Positions 39,102 to 45,447 of a DNA stretch of 64,000 nucleotides are shown here, one piece after another; positions within the stretch are counted from its first letter, which is position 1, and the number at the start of each line of letters is the position of its first letter. The stretch spans positions 1-64,000 of the forward strand of contig NZ_FZNL01000002.1 of NCBI RefSeq assembly GCF_900187965.1. The letters are read 5' to 3'. Source of the stretch: Flavobacterium sp. ov086 (GTDB taxonomy: Bacteria; Bacteroidota; Bacteroidia; Flavobacteriales; Flavobacteriaceae). The translations under genes and the position numbers were made by a program. The notes beneath the pieces were generated by a model that worked only from the letters and a program-made list of their open reading frames with translations, made no database searches and was not told the origin of the DNA.

Positions 39102-39830
39102 TTAGAAATTTGGACTTAAATCGTATTTTTTATAGAATTTATCTAGAACGTCAACTACTTCATCTTCAGTGTCTACTATTTTAAATAAGTTCAAATCTTC
39201 AGGGCTTACCGTGTGCATTTTTTCAACCAAAACCGTTTTTACCCAGTCAATTAATCCAGACCAAAATTCAACACCAACCAGAATAATTGGGAATTTCCCA
39301 ATTTTCTTAGTCTGAATCAAAGTAATTGCCTCAAACATTTCATCTAAGGTTCCAAAACCTCCAGGCATAACCACAAAACCTTGCGAATACTTAACGAACA
39401 TTACTTTTCTCACAAAGAAATAATCGAAATTCAGGTTTTTATCGTGATCAATATAAGGGTTAAAATGTTGTTCAAATGGCAATTCGATATTTAATCCAAC
39501 CGAAGTTCCGCCGCCTAAATGTGCACCTTTATTTCCAGCTTCCATAATTCCGGGACCACCTCCTGTGATTACACCGTAACCTGCCTTACTGATTTTATAG
39601 GCAATTTTTTCAGCTAATAAATAATATTTATCATCTGGTTTTGTTCTCGCCGAACCAAAAATCGATACACACGGACCAATACGTCCCATGCTTTCATATC
39701 CATTTACAAATTCAGCCATGATTTTAAAAATCGCCCAGCTGTCATTTGTTCTAATTTCATTCCACGTTTTTTGTTTCAAACGGTCCTGAATTACTTTGTC
39801 CTCATCATTATCAAAATCTTCTAATCTCAT
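39102..39830 (-). CDS. LOG-family Rossmann protein (TIGR00730 type)
   Basis: The 242-residue protein has the LOG signature PGGFGTLDEMFEAITLIQT and the nucleotide-binding stretch GYGVITGGGPGIMEAGNKGA. Family members cleave the N-glycosidic bond of nucleoside monophosphates, including cytokinin riboside monophosphate. In most bacteria the substrate is probably AMP or a related nucleotide, and this cannot be settled here. An N-terminal extension of about 45 residues is helical and charged. Confidence 0.9.
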   Translation of the reverse strand: MRLEDFDNDEDKVIQDRLKQKTWNEIRTNDSWAIFKIMAEFVNGYESMGRIGPCVSIFGSARTKPDDKYYLLAEKIAYKISKAGYGVITGGGPGIMEAGNKGAHLGGGTSVGLNIELPFEQHFNPYIDHDKNLNFDYFFVRKVMFVKYSQGFVVMPGGFGTLDEMFEAITLIQTKKIGKFPIILVGVEFWSGLIDWVKTVLVEKMHTVSPEDLNLFKIVDTEDEVVDVLDKFYKKYDLSPNF

Positions 39831-39907
39831 TTTAGGTATTTTAATTATTTATATTTTTATTTCTAGCTGTGTCGTTTTTATTATTGTAATCCTGAGCGTA
39901 GTTGAAG

Positions 39908-40022
39908 GAGCTATTTACTTCGTCAGTTCGCTATCGCTCGTGTCCTGCTGTCCGCTATATTTTTTGCTTCCGAAGCCTCGGGACCGCCACAAAATGATGT
40001 TTCCCGACACTTCAGGGCTAGG
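39908..40022 (-). repeat. Structured intergenic element, copy B
   Basis: On the minus strand it starts CCTAGCCCTGAAGTGTCGGG, then has GTGGCGGTCCCGAGGCTTCG, CAGCAGGAC and AAATAGCTCC. The order of motifs is the same as in copy A at 16486-16588. It lies in the gap 39831-40346, which has no credible gene. Confidence 0.65.
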
Positions 40023-40064
40023 TACCAGTTTTCAATTGAACTTTTGTTTTTATCCCCTGAAAAA

Positions 40065-40091
40065 TTTGTCAAAATCAAAAACTTTGACAAA
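40065..40091. repeat. Palindrome TTTGTCAAA...TTTGACAAA
   Basis: Perfect 9-bp arms around a 9-nt centre. A close relative lies at 42572-42601 on the other side of the peptide/ABC cassette. Confidence 0.7.
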
Positions 40092-40346
40092 AAGGGCGTA
40101 CTAAATTACTGCTTTTTTTGAGAATTGTTACCGAAATGAGGATTTATTAATTTAAATGTAACATTTCTTTAGCGATGTTTTTGGTTTGAGATTCATTATC
40201 AGGAGATTGGTAAATTGGAATGACTAACGGTATTTTCTAGAAATTCACTAAGTCAATTATTAAAGCTTGACTTTTCAAGAAATTTATATTTTTATTAATA
40301 GTCAATCAACTGTTGCAAAATCATTGCATATTAATACTAGATAATT

Positions 40347-40694
40347 TTATGTGCCTTTTTTTTCAAAAAGTTTTAATAATTGATTCAATTTATTAGAGAT
40401 CTCATTTACTTGATTTGGATTTATTTTAATTTTGATTTTCAATGTAGTAGCTTTAGAATTATCTTTTTCCTTGTGTTCGTGATTATTGCTATATGTCGTA
40501 TTATCGGATTCAAAAATTTGATCGATCTTAACGTTTAATATAATTGCCATTCTTTTCCATTCGTCATCTGATATTTTAATTTGTCCGTTTTCTCTCCTAT
40601 TATATTGTGATTGATCCATAAATAATAGTTCAGCAAATTCTTCTTGAGATAATTTTTTTTCCTTTCGTTTGGCTTTTAATTTTAGTTTTATCAT
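40347..40694 (-). CDS. XRE-family transcriptional regulator
   Basis: The 115-residue protein has an N-terminal helix-turn-helix of the Cro/C1 type (KEKKLSQEEFAELLFMDQSQ, then YNRRENGQIKISDDEWKRMA). A Lys-rich C-terminal region ends in an amphipathic, possibly coiled-coil helix (QVNEISNKLNQLLKLFEKK). It is divergent from the small secreted peptide gene 194 bp away. A short dyad CACATAATGTG (40769-40779) in between may be its operator. A regulatory role over the cassette is inferred from position. Confidence 0.85.
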   Translation of the reverse strand: MIKLKLKAKRKEKKLSQEEFAELLFMDQSQYNRRENGQIKISDDEWKRMAIILNVKIDQIFESDNTTYSNNHEHKEKDNSKATTLKIKIKINPNQVNEISNKLNQLLKLFEKKGT

Positions 40695-40768
40695 GATATA
40701 TTTTAGGCTTTTATGATTGCATTAAATTTAAATAAATATAAGTTTTATTTTGTTAATATTCGCAAAAA

Positions 40769-40779
40769 CACATAATGTG
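40769..40779. promoter_or_regulatory. Short dyad, candidate XRE operator
   Basis: CACATAATGTG has perfect 5-bp arms around one base. It lies between the divergent regulator and peptide genes. Evidence is positional only. Confidence 0.3.
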
Positions 40780-40888
40780 CTTTATATTCACATTTTTAAT
40801 TTCAAGAAAATAAGTAATATTTGTCTTACGTTAAAATTGTCGTGATATTTTATGTAGTTTTTAATTATTAATCTTTAAATAATCCAAA

Positions 40889-41131
40889 ATGAAAAAAATA
40901 ATTTATTCTGCTATTGCATTGATGGCATTTGTAAGTGTATCAAATGCAAATACTAAAGAAAATGTTCAATATCTTGTTTCTGAAGAAAGTAAAACAGTTC
41001 AGACTGAATTAATTGCTTTTGATAAAAGTGAAACTATAGATTTAGAATCTGCTGTTGGCCCTAGTAATGTGGACAGTGATTTTGCCGGGTTTGTTTGTTG
41101 GTTGTTTAGCATGCGCTGTCAACCGATTTAA
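40889..41131 (+). CDS. Small secreted Cys-containing peptide precursor
   Basis: The 80-residue product has a clear signal peptide (MKKIIYSAIALMAFVSVSNA). A polar, acidic middle follows (ESKTVQTELIAFDKSETIDL) and then a hydrophobic C-terminus (FAGFVCWLFSMRCQPI) with two cysteines six residues apart. This looks like a leader plus a small disulfide-loop peptide. It could be a bacteriocin-like or signalling peptide, or simply a small exported protein. No family is recognised. A hairpin follows directly, and secreted-protein, membrane and ABC genes lie downstream on the same strand. Confidence 0.7.
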   Translation: MKKIIYSAIALMAFVSVSNANTKENVQYLVSEESKTVQTELIAFDKSETIDLESAVGPSNVDSDFAGFVCWLFSMRCQPI

Positions 41132-41148
41132 TTTGTAAAAAGTAATTT

Positions 41149-41180
41149 AGCACAACTATAGATTTATTTATAGTTGTGCT
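41149..41180 (+). terminator. Hairpin after the peptide gene, possible attenuator
   Basis: AGCACAACTATA pairs perfectly over 12 bp with TATAGTTGTGCT around an 8-nt loop. The following TCTGTTATAAA is a weak U tract. Partial termination here would yield more peptide message than transporter message. Confidence 0.65.
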
Positions 41181-41201
41181 TCTGTTATAAAATGAGTTAT
41201 T

Positions 41202-41612
41202 ATGAAAATTAAAATAAAGGAAATTTTCTTTTTAAGTATGATCTTCGTATTTTGTGATTGCTATATCTATTCACAAGAAATAAAATTGGTAGGACGATGG
41301 ATAAATAGTGAAGAGTTTGCTAGTATTAATTCTATAGAATTTAGTGAAGATAATTTGGCAGTAATGTTTCAAAATGCTAACGCTTCTCCAACGTTTAGTT
41401 TTATTACAGATTTTAATAAACAACCTGTATGGATTGATATGACAGTTGTTAAAAATGGTCATGAAGTAAAGATCTTAGGATTACTAGATTTTATTAATTC
41501 TGATAAAATAAAGATGGAGCTTTTCTATGGGAACTTAAAGGAGCATCCGAGTTCTTTTTCCTTGATTAGCAATTCGCAAAGTCAATTGTATATTTTTAAT
41601 AGAGTAAAATAA
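41202..41612 (+). CDS. Secreted lipocalin-like protein
   Basis: The 136-residue protein has a signal peptide (FLSMIFVFCDCYIYSQ). A lipocalin-like beta domain follows, starting LVGRWINSEEFASINSIEFS, then VWIDMTVVKNGHEVKILGLL and SFSLISNSQSQLYIF. Domains of this kind are common but uncharacterised in Bacteroidota. Its stop codon directly abuts the next start (TAA then ATG). It could bind or protect the peptide encoded upstream, but this is only inference. Confidence 0.65.
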   Translation: MKIKIKEIFFLSMIFVFCDCYIYSQEIKLVGRWINSEEFASINSIEFSEDNLAVMFQNANASPTFSFITDFNKQPVWIDMTVVKNGHEVKILGLLDFINSDKIKMELFYGNLKEHPSSFSLISNSQSQLYIFNRVK

Positions 41613-41894
41613 ATGCTGAAAGTTATATTTAAATATTTTTGGGATGTTAATTTATTCAATTTTATTTACTCTTTCGTTTTAGGTATTTTATTTTTTAATT
41701 ATATCTATATACCTTTTATTTTTGCAACTATTGGTACTTTTTTTGGGATTTTAAGTTTTAAATATTTTTATAGCAATGAATATTATTTCTATCATAATTT
41801 AGGATTTACTGAGCTAAGATTGAATATGACGGTTTTATTTTTTAATGTTTTTATATCAATTTTTGTTTTTGCAATTTATTATTTAGTGAAATAA
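41613..41894 (+). CDS. Very small membrane protein, putative ABC partner
   Basis: The 93-residue protein has about three transmembrane helices (FIYSFVLGILFFNYIYIPFI, FATIGTFFGILSFKYF, MTVLFFNVFISIFVFAIYYL). The loop NEYYFYHNLGFTELRL before the last helix might be the coupling contact with the ABC ATPase. It directly abuts the upstream gene and is 1 bp from the ATPase gene. It is much smaller than usual ABC permeases, so it would have to oligomerise or work with a subunit encoded elsewhere. No family is recognised. Confidence 0.65.
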   Translation: MLKVIFKYFWDVNLFNFIYSFVLGILFFNYIYIPFIFATIGTFFGILSFKYFYSNEYYFYHNLGFTELRLNMTVLFFNVFISIFVFAIYYLVK

Positions 41895-41895
41895 C

Positions 41896-42558
41896 ATGAG
41901 CTTTTTAGAAATTAAAAATTTAAATAAATCTTTTAGAGGAAAGCAAATTCTGAAAGATTTGTCTTTAGAAATTAGTACAGGTGAGATAAATGTTATTTTT
42001 GGAAGAAACGGGAGTGGTAAATCAACTTTTCTAAAACTTATTTATGGAACTATAATTCCCGACAGCATTGAAGTTAGAATTGATGGAGAATTAATTAAAG
42101 ATAATAATGTTATTTTAGATAATAGAATTGGGTACTTGCCGCAAAATAATTTTTTACCCAAGAATCTTAAAGTTTCAGAAATAATCTTGATGTATTTTAG
42201 CGATGCTAATAAACAAGATAAAGTATTTTATGCTCCTCGAATAAACTCCATTCAGAATCGAAAAATTGGGCATTTGTCTATGGGTGAAAGAAGGTATCTA
42301 GAAATTATTTTACTAGGCAATTTAAATCACAAGTTTTTATTATTAGATGAACCTTTCTCAATGGTTGAGCCATTATTTGTAGAAATAATTAAAGATTTTT
42401 TAAATACTTTAAAAGATGCAAAAGGAATAATTCTGACGGATCATTATTATCAAGATGCGATGGAAATTGCAGACAAAATTTTCTTAATAAAAGATGGTAT
42501 AAAAATTAAGATTAATGAGAAAAATGATTTAATCAAACATGGATATTTGACTACTTAG
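41896..42558 (+). CDS. ABC transporter ATP-binding protein
   Basis: The 220-residue ATPase has Walker A in IFGRNGSGKSTFLKLIYG, the Q-loop at LPQNN, the signature LSMGERRYLE (a variant of LSGGQ) and Walker B FLLLDEPFS. The H-loop is in ILTDHYY. It is the last gene of the cassette that starts with the secreted peptide. Together with the 93-residue membrane protein it could form a peptide exporter or immunity pump of the LanFEG kind; this is inferred from context. Confidence 0.88.
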   Translation: MSFLEIKNLNKSFRGKQILKDLSLEISTGEINVIFGRNGSGKSTFLKLIYGTIIPDSIEVRIDGELIKDNNVILDNRIGYLPQNNFLPKNLKVSEIILMYFSDANKQDKVFYAPRINSIQNRKIGHLSMGERRYLEIILLGNLNHKFLLLDEPFSMVEPLFVEIIKDFLNTLKDAKGIILTDHYYQDAMEIADKIFLIKDGIKIKINEKNDLIKHGYLTT

Positions 42559-42571
42559 AAATTAAGTAAAT

Positions 42572-42601
42572 CTTTGTCAAAGTTTTAAAACTTTGGCAAA
42601 G
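42572..42601. terminator. Palindromic hairpin after the ABC gene
   Basis: CTTTGTCAAAGTTTT pairs with AAAACTTTGGCAAAG with one mismatch (a G-T pair in RNA). It lies between convergent genes and resembles the palindrome at 40065-40091. Confidence 0.65.
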
Positions 42602-42612
42602 ATATCATGATT

Positions 42613-45447
42613 CTAATTCTCTAATTCTTTTTTCAAAAACTTCGCTGTATAGCTTTTTTTATTTTTAGCTACTTCTTCAGGAGTTCCTTTGGCGATTAAT
42701 TGTCCGCCGCCTTTTCCGCCTTCGGGACCAATATCTATAATATAATCAGCTAGTTTAATCACGTCCATATTATGTTCGATAACCAGGATTGTATTTCCTT
42801 TATCTACCAATTTATTAATCACATCCATTAAAACACGAATGTCTTCAAAATGCAATCCGGTTGTAGGTTCATCTAAGATATAAAACGTATTTCCGGTATC
42901 TTTTTTAGATAATTCTCCGGCAAGTTTTATACGTTGCGCTTCACCACCGGAAAGCGTTGTACTTTGCTGCCCAAGTGTGATATATCCTAAGCCAACATCC
43001 TGAATCGTTTTTACTTTTCTATAAATCTTCGGAATCATTTCAAAAAACGGAACCGCTTCATCAACCGTCATATTCAATACATCCGAAATTGATTTTCCTT
43101 TGTAACGAATCTCTAAAGTTTCTCTGTTAAAACGTTTTCCCTGACACGTTTCGCATTCAACATAAACATCCGGTAAAAAGTTCATTTCGATAGTTCTAAC
43201 ACCAGAACCTTCACAGGTTTCGCAACGTCCGCCTTTTACATTGAAGCTAAAACGTCCTGCTTTGTAACCACGAATCATACTTTCAGAAGTCATCGTAAAC
43301 AAGTTTCTTATTTCGGTAAAAACTTCTGTATAAGTTGCTGGATTCGAACGTGGCGTTCTTCCAATCGGGCTTTGGTCGATATCAATTACTTTGTCAATAT
43401 GTTCCAGACCTTCAATCTTTTTATAAGGCTGTGGTTTTTTTACGCCATTAAAATAATAAGCGTTCAAAATAGGATAGAGGGTTTCGTTGATCAAAGTCGA
43501 TTTTCCACTTCCTGAAACTCCCGTAACGCAAATCAATTGTCCTAAAGGCAATTCGATCGAAACATTTTTTAAGTTGTTTCCAGTTGCTCCAGACAGCTTT
43601 AAGAACTTTCCGTTTCCTTTACGACGCTCTTTCGGAATCTCTAATTTCATTGTACCATTCAAATATTGAGCGGTAATGGTGTTCGATTTTAGAGTTTCTG
43701 CCGGAGTTCCAATACTAATGATTTCTCCGCCATATTTACCTGCTTTCGGACCAATATCAATAACATAATCGGCACGCTCGATCATATCTTTATCATGTTC
43801 TACCACGATAACCGAGTTCCCTATATCACGTAATTGTTCCAAAGAATGAATCAGTTTTTCGTTATCTCTTTGGTGCAAACCAATACTTGGTTCATCAAGG
43901 ATATATAAAACACCCACCAATTGTGAACCTATTTGGGTTGCCAATCGAATACGCTGTGCTTCACCTCCCGAAAGTGATTTTGAACTTCGGCTTAAAGCCA
44001 AATAATTCAAACCAACATTCATCAGGAAGTTCAAACGGTCTTTTATTTCTTTTACGACTTCTGATGCAATCAAAAGTTGTTTGTCTGTTAAATGTGCATT
44101 TAAATCCTGAAACCAAGTCGTTAGATCTGAAATATCCATATCACACAATTCAGTGATATTTTTTCCATTAACTCTAAAAAACTGCGCTTCTTTTTTCAAA
44201 CGAGAACCTTCACAAACCGGACAATTAATTTCGTCCATGAAGTCTTTTGCCCAACGTTTTATAGTTGTTGATGCACTTTCGTCATATTGATTTTTGATGA
44301 AATGCGAAATTCCTTCAAAATCAATTTTATAATCGCGCGTAACGCCTAAATCTTTTGAGTTTACGGTGAATTTTTCTTTTCCGCCATGCAAAATCATGTT
44401 CATGGCTTCTTCCGGAATCTTCTCGATTGGATCTGTCAGTTTGAAACTGAATTTTTCTCCAATAACTTCTAATTGTTTAAAAATCCAAGACGATTTATAT
44501 TCACCAAGCGGAGCAAAACCTCCGGCTTTAATCGATAATTTGGGATTCGGAATGATCTTTTTGACATTGATTTCGTGAACTGTTCCTAATCCATTACAAT
44601 GCGGGCAAGCTCCTTTTGGGGAGTTGAAAGAGAATAAATTAGGTTCCGGATTTTGATATGAAATTCCGGTTGTAGGACACATTAAATTTCTACTGAAATA
44701 ACGTACTTCATTGGTATCCTGATCTAAAATCATCAAGACATTTTCGCCATGATGCATTGCTGTATTAATACTTTCTGCCAATCGTTTTTGATTGTCTTCG
44801 GTATTTTCAATCAGCATTCGGTCAACTACAATTTCGATGTCGTGAGTTTTGTAACGATCGAGTTTCATTCCCGAAACCAAATCCTGAACTTCGCCATTTA
44901 CACGAACTTTCAGGAAACCTTGCTTGGTAATTTGTTGGAATAACTCGGCATAATGACCTTTTCTGGCTCTAATAATCGGAGCGAGAATATTGATTCGTTT
45001 TCCGTTAAAATCCTGTATGATCAAATCTTTAATCTGATCATCAGAATAAGAAACCATTTTCTCGCCGGTGTTGTAACTGTAAGCATCGGCACCACGAGCG
45101 TAAAGAAGTCTTAGGAAATCATATATTTCAGTAATAGTCCCAACGGTAGAACGCGGACTTTTACTGGTTGTTTTTTGTTCAATTGCGATAACAGGCGAAA
45201 GTCCGTCAATTTTGTCGACATCAGGACGTTCTAAACCGCCAAGAAACTGTCTCGCATAAGCAGAGAAAGTTTCCACATAACGACGCTGTCCTTCGGCATA
45301 AATGGTATCAAACGCCAAAGATGATTTCCCCGAACCCGAAAGACCGGTAATTACAACCAGTTTTTCACGAGGAATGGAAATATCGATATTTTTCAGATTA
45401 TGAACCCTTGCACCAAGAACTTCAATAGTATTGTCTTTTTCTAACAT
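42613..45447 (-). CDS. uvrA: Excinuclease ABC subunit A
   Basis: UvrA recognises DNA damage for nucleotide excision repair. The 944-residue protein has two ABC modules, with Walker A motifs [16 protein letters not shown] and [16 protein letters not shown]. Signature and Walker B parts are [17 protein letters not shown] with [16 protein letters not shown], and [13 protein letters not shown] with [12 protein letters not shown]. Two zinc modules are present (CPHCNGLG and CETCEGSG...CETCQGKRF). The ATG at 45447 is preferred to 45474 because a promoter box lies between them. Confidence 0.97.

What the first reader, a model, noticed from the sequence alone, without database searches (positions are those of the whole stretch)
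40347..42558. Compact XRE / secreted peptide / lipocalin-like / mini-permease / ABC cassette
Divergent XRE regulator, then an 80-residue precursor with a signal peptide and a hydrophobic Cys-X6-Cys C-terminus, a secreted lipocalin-like protein, a three-helix 93-residue membrane protein and an ABC ATPase. The last three genes abut with 0-1 bp between them. The order is that of a peptide production or immunity unit, but the small permease and the lipocalin-like partner fit no system I know. No modification enzyme or peptidase-type transporter is seen.
Basis: partly seen in the sequence, partly recalled or inferred. Interest (0 to 1): 0.7.

Follow-up and report, generated by a model that had tools for sequence, protein, structure and literature searches.

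The report
Secreted-peptide cassette with miniature ABC transporter
A five-gene cassette in a few Flavobacterium genomes makes a short secreted peptide whose last 17 residues hardly change while the rest drifts, next to its own switch gene and an unusually small ABC pump that probably protects the producer; the pump is an old, unnamed Bacteroidota pair that the cassette seems to have borrowed.

Summary
In detail: all five genes are at the stated places and the abutting is right. Relatives show a real unit: the order XRE / peptide / lipocalin-like / mini-permease / ATPase recurs in five Flavobacterium genomes, each time between LOG and uvrA, which are close neighbours in most relatives read. 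The peptide has a Sec-type signal, a fast-drifting middle and an almost invariant 17-residue C-terminus (DFAGFVCWL....CQP) under strong purifying selection. A hairpin with compensatory changes follows the peptide gene. Other close relatives of the XRE sit divergently beside double-glycine peptide precursors in 9 of 16 cases, against 1 of 27 control XREs. One relative lost XRE, peptide and most of the lipocalin-like gene but kept an intact, constrained ABC pair. Best reading (0.5): production and self-protection cassette for a Sec-secreted, probably disulfide-closed bacteriocin-like peptide. Activity, processing and immunity are inferred. A 93-residue, three-helix ABC partner without recognised Pfam or PDB relative is the most unusual part.

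The parts
40347..40694 (-). XRE/HTH_3 regulator, 115 aa, short C-terminal extension, no TPR domain found
   Evidence: HTH_3 E 4.4e-13
40769..40793 (.). candidate operator: direct repeat CACAT-N15-CACAT in the divergent promoter region
   Evidence: same place in 5 of 5 units and once in the 64-kb window, both strands; not found in 9 loci of other XRE relatives; function inferred
40889..41131 (+). secreted peptide precursor, 80 aa
40889..40948 (+). signal peptide, residues 1-20 (cleavage after SNA judged by eye)
   Evidence: sequence
41078..41128 (+). conserved core, residues 64-80 DFAGFVCWLFSMRCQPI, CX6C
   Evidence: window against L029/L030/L077 dN 0.05 with 7-8 of about 9 synonymous sites changed, middle segment dN 0.70-0.72; window against L028 core dN 0.22, middle dN 1.05
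41149..41180 (+). hairpin after the precursor gene; likely attenuating terminator
   Evidence: 14-bp stem; z -4.2; 3 pairs with changes on both sides (10 of 500 shuffles reach this) and 51 of 51 cells paired (0 of 500) in 5 sequences
41202..41612 (+). secreted 136-aa protein, possibly lipocalin-like
41613..41894 (+). 93-aa membrane protein, three predicted TM helices with a short helix before the third; putative ABC permease
41896..42558 (+). ABC ATPase, 220 aa, Walker A, LSMGE signature, Walker B and H-loop present
42570..42603 (.). 15-bp hairpin after the ATPase gene; likely terminator of the unit
   Evidence: z -6.35

Best explanation
A self-contained cassette that makes a short Sec-secreted peptide and protects its maker. 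The XRE protein controls the divergent promoters, perhaps through the CACAT repeats (inferred). The precursor leaves through Sec; the signal peptide and the variable middle are removed (inferred), leaving about 17 residues, probably closed by a disulfide between the two cysteines (inferred). The hairpin after the precursor gene lets most transcripts stop there, so much precursor and little of the downstream proteins is made (inferred). The secreted 136-aa protein binds the peptide in the periplasm, and the miniature ABC pair expels it from or keeps it out of the inner membrane, giving immunity (inferred). Shown by sequence comparison: conserved order, conserved core, conserved hairpin, company of the XRE family, wider occurrence of the ABC pair, loss of the peptide module with the ABC pair kept in one genome.
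For: Five-genome synteny between the same flanks. Precursor-like pattern of change: core dN 0.05 with near-saturated synonymous sites, middle dN 0.70-0.72 against dS 0.27-0.40 (window against L029/L030/L077). Covarying hairpin. XRE relatives beside GG-leader precursors 9 of 16 against 1 of 27 control XREs, Fisher p 1.7e-4; 5 of 7 such precursors tested match NCBIfam 'bacteriocin-like protein' NF047798 or TIGR04149 leaders, all below cut-off. Lipocalin-like, permease and ATPase genes abut. G121 keeps the lipocalin-like remnant (E 7e-16) directly before an intact permease and ATPase that remain constrained and groups with the units in the ATPase tree (94/99).
Against: No activity data. The core is nearly invariant, whereas bacteriocins often diversify (recalled). 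The ABC pair mostly lives without such peptides. Retention of an ABC pair in a single genome may be chance. None of the 16 XRE relatives has a Sec-type peptide beside it by the script's rule, so the inference crosses precursor types; the GG rule was written after seeing the relatives, and the controls are top HTH_3 hits, not a random draw. The CACAT repeat was not found beside 9 other XRE relatives. No maturation protease and no thiol oxidoreductase among the ORFs of the unit.
Confidence: 0.5

Rival explanations
1. Signal rather than weapon: the 17-residue peptide is a cell-to-cell or envelope signal; the secreted protein and ABC pair receive or clear it and the XRE closes the loop.
For: Core almost invariant between strains and the XRE well conserved, as expected of a shared signal; single divergent regulator.
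Against: The XRE is 115 aa with no TPR match, so it is unlikely to be a Rgg/PlcR/ComR-type peptide receptor; no peptide importer in the unit; its relatives keep company with precursors that resemble bacteriocin or RiPP leaders.
Confidence: 0.17
2. The ABC pair is a general envelope-lipid or stress transporter that happens to share a locus with an unrelated XRE-peptide-secreted-protein module.
For: The pair stands apart from any peptide module in most loci read, beside unrelated genes; its ATPase is nearest LptB and ABCA-type ATPases.
Against: 0- and 1-bp spacing, one ATPase group for all units (94/99), only one place for the permease in the window genome, and no peptide found without the pair.
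Confidence: 0.22
3. The peptide is a small membrane toxin acting on its own cell, held in check by the other genes, as a toxin-antitoxin-like addiction unit in the LOG-uvrA hotspot, where a RelE/ParE-like toxin pair occurs in a relative.
For: Hydrophobic C-terminus; hotspot with a toxin-antitoxin-like pair in G015 (L108).
Against: Signal peptide and fast-drifting middle imply secretion and processing; three supporting genes are more than such units usually have (recalled).
Confidence: 0.06

Closest known systems
Bacteroidetocins (PMC6671954, passages read)
   Same: Bacteroidota peptide with cysteines, small gene cluster with a membrane protein
   Different: They have a 15-16-residue double-glycine leader, a 42-residue mature peptide (A and B), a peptidase-containing ABC transporter, in most cases a thiol oxidoreductase, and no immunity gene was found; this unit has a Sec-type signal, a conserved core of about 17 residues, no such transporter, and candidate immunity genes
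GG-leader precursors of Bacteroidota (TIGR04149 RiPP leader, NF047798 bacteriocin-like leader)
   Same: Short precursors with cysteines, divergent from XRE regulators related to the window's
   Different: The window peptide has no GG leader and matches neither model at E 1
LanFEG-type immunity ABC transporters (architecture recalled; ATPase model TIGR03740 scored)
   Same: ABC ATPase plus membrane protein beside a peptide gene
   Different: ATPase scores 84.5 bits against a cut-off of 309.75; the permease is 93 residues with three predicted helices, not two larger subunits
LptB, the LPS-export ATPase
   Same: Best-scoring NCBIfam model and among the nearest PDB chains of the ATPase
   Different: 129.3 bits against a cut-off of 240; no LptF/G partner in the unit
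Small Sec-secreted Cys peptides beside GLPGLI-family proteins in Flavobacterium (loci; GLPGLI name recalled)
   Same: Very similar signal peptides; divergent XRE in two loci opened (L084, L086)
   Different: Different mature part and different partner protein; no mini-ABC pair seen within the roughly 3 kb read per locus

Membership tests
Bacteroidetocins | double-glycine leader of 15-16 residues | tested here: not met
   signal-peptide N-terminus, no GG
Bacteroidetocins | peptidase-containing ABC transporter in the cluster | tested here: not met
   none among the ORFs between LOG and uvrA; the ATPase is 220 aa with no peptidase match
Bacteroidetocins | at least two cysteines in the mature peptide | tested here: met
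   C70 and C77 invariant in 4 aligned peptides and present in L077
XRE regulators | HTH_3 domain above cut-off | tested here: met
   49.5 bits against 23
RRNPP peptide receptors (Rgg/PlcR/ComR) | C-terminal TPR domain (recalled) | tested here: not met
   115 aa in all; no TPR match in Pfam at E 1
ABC transporter ATPase | Walker A, signature, Walker B, H-loop | tested here: met
   GRNGSGKST, LSMGE, LLLDEP, TDH; ABC_tran 90.5 bits against 25
LptB | equivalog score cut-off | tested here: not met
   TIGR04406 129.3 against 240
Lantibiotic protection ATPase (LanF, TIGR03740) | subfamily score cut-off | tested here: not met
   84.5 against 309.75
ABC permease (any named family) | recognisable permease domain | tested here: inconclusive
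   no Pfam family matched by more than 1 of 25 members at E 0.1, no PDB sequence match at E 1; the partner ATPase and a coupling-helix-like motif (my reading) point to a permease
Lipocalin-like | up-and-down beta barrel | tested here: inconclusive
   seven strands at pLDDT 51.5; TIGR03067 below cut-off
Bacteriocin | growth inhibition of relatives and immunity of the producer | not testable with these tools
   needs bench work

The most novel reading that the evidence does not exclude
The mini-permease (about 90-105 aa, three helices) and its about 220-aa ATPase form a hitherto unnamed ABC transporter type, spread through Bacteroidia, with one of the smallest membrane subunits known; one Flavobacterium clade has recruited it, with a secreted binding protein, as dedicated immunity for a Sec-secreted disulfide peptide bacteriocin, an arrangement unlike the GG-leader systems of the phylum.
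Probability: 0.3. Interest if true: 0.75.

Novelty: new variant of a known kind. Interest (0 to 1): 0.5.

Why it matters
The Bacteroidota peptide toxins described in the paper whose passages I read (bacteroidetocins) use double-glycine leaders and no immunity gene was found for them. A Sec-secreted peptide with its own regulator, attenuator and candidate immunity genes would give a small, testable model of how these bacteria make and survive such peptides. Separately, a conserved ABC pair whose membrane part has only about 93 residues and three helices would test how small an ABC transporter can be.

Tried and rejected
Rejected or disfavoured: RRNPP-type peptide sensing (no TPR); bacteroidetocin membership (no GG leader, no peptidase transporter); a phage or plasmid origin is not supported (no tblastn match of the peptide in plasmids, or of the permease in phages; other genes not tried); a known defence system (PADLOC: generic HTH models for the XRE; for the ATPase ATPase models only, the best being mad3 with 76 bits, E 8.6e-22; nothing for the other three); an ABC pair specific to peptides.

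Led nowhere: AlphaFold2 of the 136-aa protein (pLDDT 51.5; not searched further); structural second look with the permease model (one chain, a GPCR complex, Z 3.2: no information); CACAT repeats beside other XRE relatives (none in the 9 loci L169, L171, L173, L174, L177, L178, L179, L181, L183 scanned); a window search for the repeat with a wrong spacing (0 matches); sigma-70-type promoter scan (16 found, 16.3 expected). Lipocalin-like relatives: 6 of 199 genus genomes at E 0.001, of which 3 are the window, RC62 and the G121 remnant; of the other 3 I opened only L218 (G186, E 3e-8), which has no such unit beside it. Of the 66 of 398 genomes matching the peptide profile at E 0.01, 3 are full-length; of the rest I opened 10 loci (L080-L086, L088, L092, L098) and they share only the signal peptide. 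Of 14 of 246 order genomes with the core DNA pattern at up to 2 mismatches, only the window and G595 have it exactly; the backward-pattern control also matched in 6 genomes, so the 12 inexact ones are about at chance level. G595 appears to be LC2016-23 (same coordinates and peptide as L030; inference). Of those 12, five showed the motif in an ORF that is no such peptide (L221, L226, L227, L229, L231) and seven showed no ORF of 30 or more residues with it (L223, L225, L228, L230, L232, L233, L234). Literature searches for such a unit, for GLPGLI-linked peptides or for a three-helix ABC permease gave nothing to the point (listings only, apart from passages of PMC6671954 and PMC10352776).

Full report
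What is there. The five ORFs are as described. The XRE (HTH_3, 4.4e-13) and the ATPase (ABC_tran, 1.8e-25) match Pfam above cut-off; the peptide, the 136-aa secreted protein and the 93-aa membrane protein match nothing above cut-off in Pfam or NCBIfam. The membrane protein is modelled with three long helices and a short helix before the third (pLDDT 67). The 'lipocalin' label rests on a sub-threshold TIGR03067 match and a poor beta-rich model (pLDDT 51.5).

The unit recurs. Every full-length peptide found lies in such a unit. In a sample of the genus, 3 of 398 genomes have a full-length peptide match, so it is rare. In all five the unit lies between the LOG gene and uvrA; in four of them, not in the window, a cupin-like gene lies between LOG and XRE. 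In relatives LOG and uvrA are usually close: of 29 other loci read (30 loci were returned out of 71 of 80 genomes matched), 20 have uvrA within 1 kb of LOG (gaps 16-969 bp) and 9 showed no uvrA in the 1.5 kb held; in the window the gap is 2.8 kb. The unit is therefore most simply an insertion between neighbours. The same gap holds other cargo in relatives, for example a RelE/ParE-like toxin pair in G015 (L108) and a DUF559-like gene in L113 and L124 (names are my reading).

The peptide looks like a precursor. Signal peptide, then a segment that drifts, then a 17-residue end that barely changes: DFAGFVCWL and CQP are invariant in the four aligned peptides. Between the window and L029, L030 or L077 the core has dN 0.05 while 7 or 8 of its roughly 9 synonymous sites differ; the middle has dN 0.70-0.72 against dS 0.27-0.40. 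Against L028 the core dN is 0.22, because residues between the cysteines and the tail differ, and the middle has dN 1.05 against dS 1.17. The segments are short and the middle aligns poorly, so these are rough figures.

RNA and DNA signals. Between the peptide stop and the next gene lies a hairpin (41149-41180) found in all five units; 51 of 51 cells pair, 3 pairs have changes on both sides (10 of 500 shuffles reach that number), and 0 of 500 shuffles reach the covariation score; the window, L028 and L029 hairpins fold 4.2, 4.2 and 2.7 standard deviations below shuffles. In L028, L029, L030 and L077 a run of T follows; in the window the run is poorer, though it passes the terminator-like rule. 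I read it as an attenuating terminator (inference). A second hairpin closes the unit after the ATPase (z -6.35). In the divergent XRE/peptide gap, CACAT-N15-CACAT is present at the same place in 5 of 5 units and only once in the 64-kb window, but it is absent from 9 loci of other XRE relatives; it may be the XRE operator (inference).

The XRE keeps company with peptides. A profile of the unit XREs found 18 places in 15 of 199 genus genomes at E 1e-14; 2 are the window and RC62, 16 are others. By a scripted rule 9 of these 16 have, divergently, a short ORF with a double-glycine-type leader; by eye a tenth (L174); the other six show none. Of 30 best HTH_3 loci taken as control, 27 could be read (L203, L204, L211 could not) and 1 met the rule, by eye a false positive; Fisher p 1.7e-4. 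The rule was made after seeing the relatives and the controls are top HTH_3 hits, not a random draw, so this is good but not strict evidence. One such locus is in the window's own genome (G000:C44, L183). Of 7 GG precursors tested, 5 match NCBIfam NF047798 ('bacteriocin-like protein') or TIGR04149 leaders, all below cut-off, and 2 match nothing. None of the 16 has a Sec-type small peptide by the script's rule, so the unit's Sec-type precursor is special.

The ABC pair is found far beyond the unit. With the window permease as query, 27 of 249 genus genomes matched at E 0.01, the weakest probably chance. With a 25-sequence profile, 32 of 395 Bacteroidota genomes from 11 of 170 genera matched at E 0.001. 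A motif script found an ABC ATPase just downstream in 21 of 27 and 29 of 30 of the loci held, units included; of the 7 misses, L019, L022, L024, L026 and L027 are weak or partial matches, L159 has an ATPase in the ORF list and L004 shows its C-terminal part. Neighbours outside the unit clade vary: a RecB-like nuclease in many Flavobacterium, a sigma factor and endonuclease V-like gene in family f17, a MutS2-like gene in f5 (my reading of the sequences). In the 18 loci outside the unit listed (ATG-started ORFs of 60 or more residues, or of 40 or more beginning MK) I see no small secreted peptide gene beside the pair. No Pfam family is matched by more than 1 of 25 permeases and no PDB chain matches the profile at E 1. 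The ATPase scores best against LptB but far below its cut-off. In an ATPase tree of 54 rows the six members of the unit locus, truncated G121 included, form one group (94/99, just under the tool's starred level; 95% of 200 bootstrap trees), in a weakly supported larger group (85/91) with stand-alone Flavobacteriaceae pairs.

A natural deletion. G121 has LOG, then no recognisable XRE or peptide, then only residues 91-136 of the secreted protein (E 7e-16), then an intact permease and ATPase, and farther on uvrA. Its ATPase groups with the units (its exact sister is poorly supported, 80/46) and is nearly as constrained as the others (dN 0.13-0.14 with dS 0.65-1.5, against dN 0.12-0.13 among three units). 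So the peptide module was lost and the ABC pair kept, as expected of leftover immunity, but it is a single case.

Reading. The most economical account is a production and self-protection cassette for a Sec-secreted peptide, built onto an existing ABC pair. Bacteroidetocins differ in leader, transporter and lack of an immunity gene (PMC6671954, passages); a Bacteroidales RiPP survey likewise detected no homologue of described immunity proteins (PMC10352776, passages). A signal rather than a weapon, and an ABC pair unrelated to the peptide, remain open.

Noticed in passing
L080-L086, L088, L092, L098: Flavobacterium genomes carry many short secreted cysteine peptides with near-identical signal peptides (MKKL.F.A.AL.AFSSVSMAN), often in tandem with GLPGLI-type proteins (name recalled) and sometimes with a divergent XRE (L084, L086). 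No Pfam family matches the two tested.
   Followed up: partly
L010, L012, L013, L016, L017, L018, L020, L021, L023, L025: Stand-alone mini-permeases next to the RecB-like nuclease have no ATG, GTG or TTG before the first helix; the frame seems to start at ATT, ATC or ATA, as if rare start codons were conserved.
   Followed up: no
window 39830-42613 and L108, L113, L124; L028, L029, L030, L235: The gap between the LOG gene and uvrA holds different cargo in different Flavobacterium; four of the five units have a cupin-like gene there that the window lacks.
   Followed up: partly
G000:C44, L183: The window's own genome has a second XRE of the same family divergent from a GG-leader cysteine-rich peptide.
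   Followed up: no
window 40079-40092, 42572-42601: AAACTTTGRCAAAG-type elements lie on both sides of the unit and nowhere else in the window at up to 1 mismatch (3 matches, 0.22 expected); they may be shared terminators or traces of insertion.
   Followed up: no
L004, L006, L007: In some Flavobacterium a secreted protein of about 175-184 aa with a short cysteine cluster lies upstream of the stand-alone mini-permease (the adjacent gene in L006 and L007), another possible secreted partner.
   Followed up: no
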